This document shows positions 3,938 to 5,901 of a stretch of 34,436 nucleotides of DNA, one piece after another (the stretch's first letter is position 1; every line of letters begins with the position of its first letter). The stretch spans positions 1-34,436 of IMG/VR virus record IMGVR_UViG_3300024520_000275; one strand, given 5' to 3'. The notes beneath the pieces were generated by a model, which worked only from the letters and a program-made list of their open reading frames with translations, did no database searches and was not told where the DNA came from. Both the position numbers and the translations under genes were made by a program. This DNA is from a virus.

Positions 3938-4489
3938 ATGAGGATTGATAAAGATGATTATAGGTTGGAAGTCATAAAGAACTATGTTGAATATAAGATA
4001 GGGATAAATGATATTTCATTACCAACCAAAACAAATCCTTATGTGTTCAGTAGAGCTACTTTCTATTATCTTTGTAGGGAATATACAGGATATAGTATGG
4101 AATCTATAGGTGAGTATGTTGGCAGAGACCATGCATGTGTTATACATGCTTTAAAAAAGACACTTAAAGACGTTCCTGAGAAGTACAATGAAGCTATAAG
4201 GGATTTCAATAAGAACTCATTACTGACAGAAGAGGTTGGTTATTCTGTTATAAGGGATAATGAATCCCTTGTGCTTAATAATAGGGACTTGGAGAAAAGG
4301 AATAGTAGATTAAGAAGGAAGCTATCCACTATGTTGAATGAAGGTGTTGTGGGAAGGTTGGCTGGACTCCTGGTTGGAATGGATGAGATTGATAAAAGGA
4401 ATATTTCTGATAGGATAGAAGCCATGATAATGATGGAGAATAAAAAGAAGCAATATAAATCACTAGAAAGAAAACAATTGAACACATGA
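3938..4489 (+). CDS. DnaA domain IV-like DNA-binding protein with coiled-coil tail
   Basis: 183 residues. Residues about 34-75 match the DnaA C-terminal DNA-binding domain: FSRATFYYLCREYTGYSMES, then IGEYVGRDHACVIHALKK, with the GRDH(A/S)xVIHA signature that reads DnaA boxes in the host initiator. The ATPase domains of DnaA are absent. From about 105 on the protein is helical and basic, probably a coiled coil. It may bind DnaA boxes in phage or host DNA, as an origin factor or competitor; this is inference. It overlaps the next gene as ATGA. Confidence 0.75.
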   Translation: MRIDKDDYRLEVIKNYVEYKIGINDISLPTKTNPYVFSRATFYYLCREYTGYSMESIGEYVGRDHACVIHALKKTLKDVPEKYNEAIRDFNKNSLLTEEVGYSVIRDNESLVLNNRDLEKRNSRLRRKLSTMLNEGVVGRLAGLLVGMDEIDKRNISDRIEAMIMMENKKKQYKSLERKQLNT

Positions 4490-4611
4490 AAGAAGAGATA
4501 GTAAAAAGATTAGCGCAAGCCAGAGTAGAGAACAGTAATGAAGTGGTTAATGACATCTTAGTTGATGTAATGATTAAAACAGAAAACCATTTAATAGATG
4601 CCGAACACTAA
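4486..4611 (+). CDS. Small hypothetical protein (41 aa)
   Basis: ATG at 4486 in an ATGA overlap; TAA at 4609-4611. Acidic, helical, no known motif. Its last 14 bases overlap the start of the homing endonuclease frame, that is, the original 5' end of the resolvase gene. In a phage without the endonuclease this gene would overlap the resolvase gene directly. Confidence 0.6.
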   Translation: MKEEIVKRLAQARVENSNEVVNDILVDVMIKTENHLIDAEH

Positions 4612-5143
4612 CAGAACAAAGGAAAAATGGGTTGACATTCCTGATTGGGAAAGTTATTATCAGGTTTCAGACAGGGGTAGAGTGAGGTCTTGTACACGAA
4701 GATGTAAAACAAAATGGGGAGATAGACTTGTGCCATATAGACTAATGTCTTTAGTTCAGTGGGGTAAAACAAATCATTTAGGACTTAGACTTAAAAAGCA
4801 TGGATATTCAAAACAATATTATGTTCATCAACTTGTAGCTATAGCTTTCTTAGGACATAACCCAAAAGAATCTGGGTTTATTATAGACCATGTAGATGAG
4901 AATCCAAGAAACAATTACCTTAGCAACCTAATGTTGGTTACAGTTAGATATAACACATCTAAAAGCATAAGACACAAGGGGAAATCAACCTCAAAATATA
5001 CTGGTGTTTCGTGGGATAAGAAAAGTAAAAAATGGAAAGCACAGATAGTTATTAATGGCAAAAAAGAACATTTAGGTTTCTTTGATAACGAAAGAGATGC
5101 TTCTGAAACTTATAAAAATAGAATGTATGCCCAATACCAATAG
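4598..5143 (+). CDS. NUMOD4-HNH-AP2 homing endonuclease inserted at the 5' end of the resolvase gene
   Basis: 181 residues. After an atypical N-terminal MPNTNRTK, a NUMOD4 domain (about 10-60: KWVDIPDWESYYQVSDRGRV) leads into the HNH core (about 72-125: VHQLVAIAFL, IIDHVDENPRNNYLSNL) and an AP2-like DNA-binding repeat (about 130-175: YTGVSWDKKSKKWKAQI). This is a typical free-standing phage homing endonuclease. MPNTNR is also the start of the downstream resolvase, so the element sits just after codon 6 of that gene and uses its start. Its last codons and TAG overlap a recoded copy of those six codons. Confidence 0.85.
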   Translation: MPNTNRTKEKWVDIPDWESYYQVSDRGRVRSCTRRCKTKWGDRLVPYRLMSLVQWGKTNHLGLRLKKHGYSKQYYVHQLVAIAFLGHNPKESGFIIDHVDENPRNNYLSNLMLVTVRYNTSKSIRHKGKSTSKYTGVSWDKKSKKWKAQIVINGKKEHLGFFDNERDASETYKNRMYAQYQ

Positions 5144-5501
5144 GAATAAAGGTCATCGAGCAGAGAGGTTGTATGCAAATGAGTTCAAATCATTGGGGTA
5201 TGATAAGTGTATAACTTCTCGTTATGGTAGCAGAGTTCATGATGACTGTGGTATTGATTTACTCAACGTGCCCGTTAACGTGCAAATAAAGGCGGGTAAG
5301 CAGAGGGGAATAAATTACAGTAGTGTACTATCAAATATCAGAGAAAGGCTCTTAGAACTCTTTACAATGGATTCTAAGGAATTTGAGTATCCAAGTATAG
5401 TGATTCATAGAAAAGATGTTGGCAAAGGTAATAAGAGGGATGAATATGATGATTTAGTTATAATGAGTTGGAATGATTATAAACAATTAATAGAAAAATG
5501 A
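5127..5501 (+). CDS. PD-(D/E)XK nuclease, Hjc-like Holliday junction resolvase
   Basis: 124 residues from the ATG at 5127. An ATG 45 bases upstream in frame is rejected because that sequence belongs to the homing endonuclease. Motifs fit the Hjc-type resolvase/nuclease fold: KGHRAERLYANEF (catalytic Glu), CITSRYGSRVHDDCGIDLL (catalytic Asp) and VNVQIKAG (Q-x-K). It would cleave branched DNA made by replication and ERF recombination. The first six codons encode MPNTNR, the same as the upstream endonuclease, but with synonymous codons. Overlaps the next gene by four bases. Confidence 0.75.
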   Translation: MPNTNRNKGHRAERLYANEFKSLGYDKCITSRYGSRVHDDCGIDLLNVPVNVQIKAGKQRGINYSSVLSNIRERLLELFTMDSKEFEYPSIVIHRKDVGKGNKRDEYDDLVIMSWNDYKQLIEK

Positions 5502-5755: not shown

Positions 5756-5901
5756 AAATAGGCAGTATAAATAATAAGTGGAAGATAAGTGAAGAGGACG
5801 CTATAAAAGAGTATCCTCTTATACTTGAAAAGAAGAGTAACCTTACATCTACACAGAGAAGGGTGGTTATTAAGTTTATTGAAGGTTTAGATATTAAATA
5901 A
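5752..5901 (+). CDS. Small hypothetical protein (49 aa)
   Basis: ATG at 5752 overlaps the preceding stop as ATGA; TAA at 5899-5901. Basic, with KWKISEEDAIKEYPLILEKK and a C-terminal helix. No domain recognised. Seven bases separate it from the last plus-strand gene of this module. Confidence 0.55.
   Translation: MKIGSINNKWKISEEDAIKEYPLILEKKSNLTSTQRRVVIKFIEGLDIK

What the first reader, a model, noticed from the sequence alone, without database searches (positions are those of the whole stretch)
4598..5146. Homing endonuclease captured the first codons of the resolvase gene and rebuilds them as a fully recoded copy
Seen: the endonuclease starts ATG CCG AAC ACT AAC AGA (MPNTNR) and the resolvase after it starts ATG CCC AAT ACC AAT AGG (MPNTNR). 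All five codons after ATG differ at the third base only, while the peptide is unchanged. MPNTNR is not part of a normal NUMOD4 start. The endonuclease's own last codons and TAG overlap the recoded copy in another frame. Inference: the element inserted after codon 6, fused itself to the resolvase start signals, and supplies a substitute 5' end whose changes block self-cleavage and repeat recombination. Known parallels exist where an inserted endonuclease gene replaces the end of a host gene (Allomyces atp6), but I do not know a described phage case that restores a recoded start in this way.
Basis: partly seen in the sequence, partly recalled or inferred. Interest (0 to 1): 0.78.

Follow-up and report, generated by a model that had tools for sequence, protein, structure and literature searches.

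The report
Phage endonuclease wearing a resolvase start
In a Bacteroidota-type phage, a homing endonuclease gene begins with a borrowed copy of the first codons of the next gene, a DNA-junction resolvase; this is most likely the scar of a one-sided recombination between two diverged phages, and a related phage carries the same kind of scar with no endonuclease.

Summary
In detail: the NUMOD4-HNH endonuclease (4598-5143) and the resolvase behind it (5127-5501) both start MPNTNR, and all five codons after ATG differ only at the third base. Chance is unlikely: MPNTNR is an extension absent from 80 related endonucleases, and start copies this good are very rare in 632,000 ATG pairs. A related phage (L047, about 80% DNA identity) has, behind the same small upstream gene, a stub of the start of its own, unrelated (T7 endonuclease I-like) resolvase. 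The stub is separated from the intact gene by a different cargo, without any endonuclease. There the stub goes with the native left flank, and the cargo plus intact resolvase goes with a second, foreign copy of that flank. So both starts look like recombination scars: recipient 5' stub, then donor cargo and donor start. Complete synonymous difference needs no selected recoding: shared codons differ 51% of the time between relatives (five of five, about 3-5%), and in L047 only three of eight differ. The only close endonuclease-free relative starts MANTNR and uses the downstream copy's codons. I rate it a new, mirror-image (5' end) variant of endonuclease inserts that duplicate a gene end.

The parts
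4486..4611 (+). small ORF of unknown function (MKEEIVKRLAQARVENSNEVVNDILVDVMIKTENHLIDAEH); overlaps the endonuclease start by 14 bases; the conserved left flank shared with L047
   Evidence: 91% DNA identity over 47 bases to L047, directly before the stub in both phages
4598..4621 (+). upstream start copy: MPNTNRTK, resolvase-type start fused in frame to the endonuclease
4598..5143 (+). NUMOD4-HNH homing endonuclease (181 aa), with a partial AP2 domain
   Evidence: Pfam NUMOD4 5e-12, HNH_3 2e-12; AP2 6e-5 below cut-off; PHROG HNH endonuclease 2e-29
5127..5150 (+). downstream start copy: MPNTNRNK, start of the intact resolvase; overlaps the endonuclease 3' end by 17 bases
5127..5501 (+). Hjc-like PD-(D/E)XK Holliday junction resolvase (124 aa)
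   Evidence: 28-member family, invariant E13, D44, Q53, K55; model pLDDT 92.5; viral Hjc models E 8.5e-7 and 1.1e-6; weaker matches to archaeal Hjc
5779..5885 (+). conserved right flank: next DNA shared with L047 (81%), showing that the block between the flanks was exchanged

Best explanation
The doubled start is the scar of a one-sided, probably break-driven, exchange between two diverged phages. The recipient had its resolvase gene directly behind the small ORF. A donor carrying endonuclease plus resolvase repaired or replaced this place. On the right the two resolvase genes were similar enough to recombine. The endonuclease thereby took over the recipient's start (MPNTNRTK, fused in frame), and the gene behind it keeps a complete start from the donor. 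The synonymous differences are the ordinary divergence between donor and recipient alleles. Shown: the copies, the fusion, the exchanged block between conserved flanks, and the same architecture in L047. Inferred: direction, the break, and that this endonuclease made it.
For: MPNTNR(T) is an extension absent from 80 related endonucleases. The homologous resolvase core begins at T4-N5 of the downstream gene, so the motif belongs to the resolvase. L047, whose other genes match the window at 74-82% DNA identity, has behind the same small ORF a stub MAYKRKKGNGI of its own resolvase (MTYKRKKGKGI), then a second, diverged tail of the small ORF (DVMIKTENHL), a 77-aa gene, and the intact resolvase. 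Tail A, next to the stub, is closer to the window (40 of 45 bases) than tail B, next to the cargo (33 of 45), so stub = native side and cargo plus intact gene = foreign side. The two resolvases are unrelated in sequence (no significant match), so the two events are separate. Shared-codon difference of 51% between resolvase relatives (38 of 74) makes 5 of 5 unremarkable. T4 work shows that one-sided homology gives illegitimate double-strand-break repair with microhomology junctions (PMC2988022).
Against: No actual donor or recipient without the insert was found, so direction in the window rests on analogy with L047. The closest endonuclease-free start (L015) uses the downstream copy's codons; that fits a donor-type start but does not prove it. 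The longest exact word shared by the two junction regions is six bases, so no microhomology can be demonstrated. All six shared codons (K8 included) differ, at p about 0.02, a mild excess. The window is a metagenome assembly, and the two near-identical contigs (L045, L046) do not cover 4598-5146.
Confidence: 0.6

Rival explanations
1. One reading: the endonuclease inserted into its own phage's resolvase gene and carries a copy of the start whose codons were changed under selection, so that the allele is not re-cut and the two copies do not recombine.
For: All five (with K8 six) shared codons differ; chance at saturation 0.05 (0.025 with K8). The longest shared word across the junction regions is six bases, too short for deletion by homologous recombination.
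Against: Ordinary divergence gives 0.02-0.035. L047's copies differ at only 3 of 8 shared codons and have no endonuclease. L015 shares the downstream codons. Cleavage site unknown.
Confidence: 0.12
2. Modular gene exchange at a hot spot behind the small ORF, in which the endonuclease is only a passenger: any cargo can be added in front of the resolvase by illegitimate or homeologous recombination, leaving a start stub.
For: L047 shows the same scar with a non-nuclease 77-aa cargo and a different resolvase.
Against: The window cargo is an intact endonuclease whose class is known to drive such exchanges and to sit at exchange boundaries (PMC2988022, PMC10448857); two cases are too few to separate driver from passenger.
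Confidence: 0.23
3. Coincidence or convergence: the endonuclease start and the resolvase start agree by chance; MPNTN-type starts are common enough.
For: MPNTN(K/R)NKG also occurs at the start of an unrelated resolvase-like phage protein (L014) and by chance in an unrelated frame (L145). The DNA at 4594-4611 also faintly resembles L047's MEHVS start region.
Against: Peptide chance 3.5e-7; only pair of its kind in the window; absent from 80 related endonucleases; a second, independent start copy at the same place in a relative.
Confidence: 0.05

Closest known systems
Endonuclease mobile ORFs that duplicate a gene end in fungal mitochondria (Allomyces atp6; Glomus atp6, atp9, cox2, nad3; PMC3630166)
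   Same: An endonuclease gene inserted at a host-gene end, two copies of that end, nearly the same protein but many synonymous differences, explained there by horizontal transfer of the donor end.
   Different: There the 3' end (C-terminus) is duplicated; here it is the 5' end, in a phage, and the native start is fused to the endonuclease.
One-sided (illegitimate) homing of phage T4 introns (Parker, Belisle and Belfort 1999, as reviewed in PMC2988022)
   Same: Homology on one side only; the other side is joined illegitimately; phage recombination machinery.
   Different: That was a laboratory assay with an intron; here a free-standing endonuclease, event inferred from sequence.
Free-standing phage endonucleases such as mobE of T4 and Aeh1 (intronless homing, split nrdA; PMC2988022)
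   Same: Endonuclease between or within essential genes, overlapping the neighbours' ends.
   Different: Aeh1 nrdA is split into two working pieces; here the resolvase is whole and only its start is doubled.
Endonuclease genes at boundaries of exchange between phages (PMC10448857)
   Same: Endonuclease sits at the edge of an exchanged block.
   Different: No doubled gene start came up in the passages of that paper searched here.

Membership tests
NUMOD4-HNH homing endonucleases | NUMOD4 and HNH_3 domains | tested here: met
   NUMOD4 5.1e-12, HNH_3 1.8e-12, both above curated cut-offs
NUMOD4-HNH homing endonucleases | site-specific cleavage of endonuclease-free alleles and transfer | not testable with these tools
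   needs protein and phage crosses
Hjc-like PD-(D/E)XK Holliday junction resolvases | PD-(D/E)XK active site and Hjc fold | tested here: met
   invariant E13, D44, Q53, K55; model pLDDT 92.5 matches viral Hjc models, E 8.5e-7; solved Hjc structures match only weakly (E 0.06)
Hjc-like PD-(D/E)XK Holliday junction resolvases | junction cleavage | not testable with these tools
   needs purified protein
Endonuclease inserts that duplicate a host-gene end (Allomyces atp6 type) | two copies of one gene end flanking the endonuclease gene | tested here: met
   but 5' rather than 3' end
Endonuclease inserts that duplicate a host-gene end (Allomyces atp6 type) | native copy matches an insert-free close relative, inserted copy is foreign | tested here: inconclusive
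   no close insert-free relative; L015 (61-63% aa) resembles the downstream copy; in L047 the flank test supports stub = native
Selected recoding against self-cleavage | more synonymous change than expected from divergence | tested here: inconclusive
   p 0.02-0.05 in the window, absent in L047

The most novel reading that the evidence does not exclude
In this phage group the start of the resolvase gene is a recurrent entry door: cargo genes (endonuclease or not) enter a few codons into the gene, keep the old start for themselves and restore the gene with a second start. It happened at least twice, with unrelated resolvases, as a 5'-end counterpart of the fungal gene-end mobile elements.
Probability: 0.25. 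Interest if true: 0.62.

Novelty: new variant of a known kind. Interest (0 to 1): 0.42.

Why it matters
It gives a phage example, at the 5' end, of an insertion that leaves two copies of a gene end, and a simple reason (two parents) for copies that look recoded. It also shows, through L047, that such scars need not mean that an endonuclease rewrote the gene. Start stubs of this kind can be searched for as markers of past exchange.

Tried and rejected
DNA similarity of the region to annotated phages: no match. Resolvase in plasmids: none; in GTDB genomes by alignment: none. Pattern scan for other MPNTN-K/R starts: one unrelated resolvase-like protein in IMG/VR and one chance frame in a Ruminococcus MAG. 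Pattern scan for the small ORF's MIKTENHL: only L047 plus two chance hits. Scan of 30 resolvase relatives for upstream start copies: none comparable. Survey of 80 related endonucleases for a start shared with the next gene: none but the window (L143 is a second endonuclease). The 77-aa L047 cargo and the small ORF have no match in phages. First structure run with 8 sequences was poor. The weak similarity of 5109-5126 to L015's upstream DNA was put down to chance, since those codons align with the endonuclease family's own C-terminus. Literature searches showed no title or abstract describing a phage gene with a doubled start flanking an endonuclease; papers were only partly read.

Full report
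Observation. The window is a 34.4-kb IMG/VR virus record. The endonuclease ORF (4598-5143) and the resolvase ORF (5127-5501) start MPNTNRTKE and MPNTNRNKG; residues 2-6 are identical and every one of the five codons differs at the third base only, as does K8. The endonuclease stop lies inside the resolvase start in another frame (17-base overlap). A small ORF (4486-4611) overlaps the endonuclease start by 14 bases. The endonuclease has intact NUMOD4 and HNH_3 domains.

Identity of the neighbour. 'Resolvase' is right. The 124-aa protein belongs to a family found in metagenomic phage contigs and in Flavobacterium phages, with invariant E13, D44, Q53 and K55, a PD-(D/E)XK pattern. A model built from 28 members (pLDDT 92.5) matches viral Hjc models (E 8.5e-7) and, weakly, archaeal Hjc structures.

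Not chance. The peptide has a composition probability of 3.5e-7. It is the only ATG pair in the window with 6 of 8 shared residues. In all sequences held (632,000 pairs) comparable pairs are L047's resolvase starts, paralogues or repeats, and a few short or unexplained ORFs. In 80 related endonucleases the start codon is usually followed by only a few residues before E-x-W, none begins MPNTNR, and none shares its start with the next gene except where that is a second endonuclease. In the resolvase family the conserved core begins at TNR/TNK, so the motif is resolvase property.

The sister case. L047 (contig IMGVR_UViG_3300032272_000108) matches most of its shared stretch with the window at 74-82% DNA identity. 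Its resolvase is a T7 endonuclease I-like protein, some of whose relatives are annotated as DUF1064, without significant similarity to the window's. Reading its minus strand: small ORF (12862-12704), overlapped by a stub MAYKRKKGNGID that runs in frame into a second, diverged tail of the small ORF (RIDERIIDVMIKTENHL, stub ORF 12729-12640), then a 77-aa gene (12637-12404), then the intact resolvase MTYKRKKGKGIV (12403-11954). Tail A (before the stub) is 40 of 45 identical to the window's small ORF, tail B (before the cargo) 33 of 45. So the stub belongs with the native flank, and cargo plus intact resolvase came with a foreign flank. No endonuclease is present.

Reading of the window. By the same logic the upstream MPNTNRTK is the recipient's old start, now driving the endonuclease, and 5127-5501 begins with the donor's start. 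Recombination with homology on one side and illegitimate joining on the other is documented for T4 homing (PMC2988022), and endonuclease genes sit at exchange boundaries (PMC10448857). Fungal mitochondria show the mirror image: in Glomus, the two atp6 C-terminal copies share 63.5% of DNA but 91% of protein, attributed to horizontal transfer (PMC3630166).

Is the recoding special? Among residues shared by the window resolvase and L015, 38 of 74 codons differ; five of five differing has probability 0.035, six of six 0.018, and 0.05 and 0.025 by window codon usage. In L047 three of eight shared codons differ. A mild excess in one of two cases does not require selection.

Limits. No donor or empty-site relative was found; the two near-identical contigs do not cover the junctions; cleavage specificity is untested. 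Misassembly is unlikely, since the copies share no exact word longer than six bases and both flanks match L047.

Noticed in passing
L047:11954-12862 (- strand): Resolvase start stub fused in frame to a second, diverged tail of the upstream small ORF, ahead of a 77-aa gene without known relatives and a T7 endonuclease I-like resolvase.
   Followed up: yes
L074, L076, L080, L084, L091, L092, L094, L095, L098, L101, L102, L140: A subgroup of NUMOD4-HNH genes begins with the extension MIA(K/S)xLSR(L/I)G(I/V)EVWK; in the five inspected (L074, L076, L094, L095, L140) the region carries phage exonuclease gene ends, directly upstream in L094 and L095. Origin of the extension unknown.
   Followed up: partly
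L018:7236 and 7813 (+): Two neighbouring small ORFs begin MYIEFEQ with similar next residues; paralogues or another start copy.
   Followed up: partly
window 3938-4489 (+): Phage protein with a DnaA C-terminal DNA-binding domain (Bac_DnaA_C, 6.6e-14) just before the exchanged block; related proteins also in L047 and L015.
   Followed up: no
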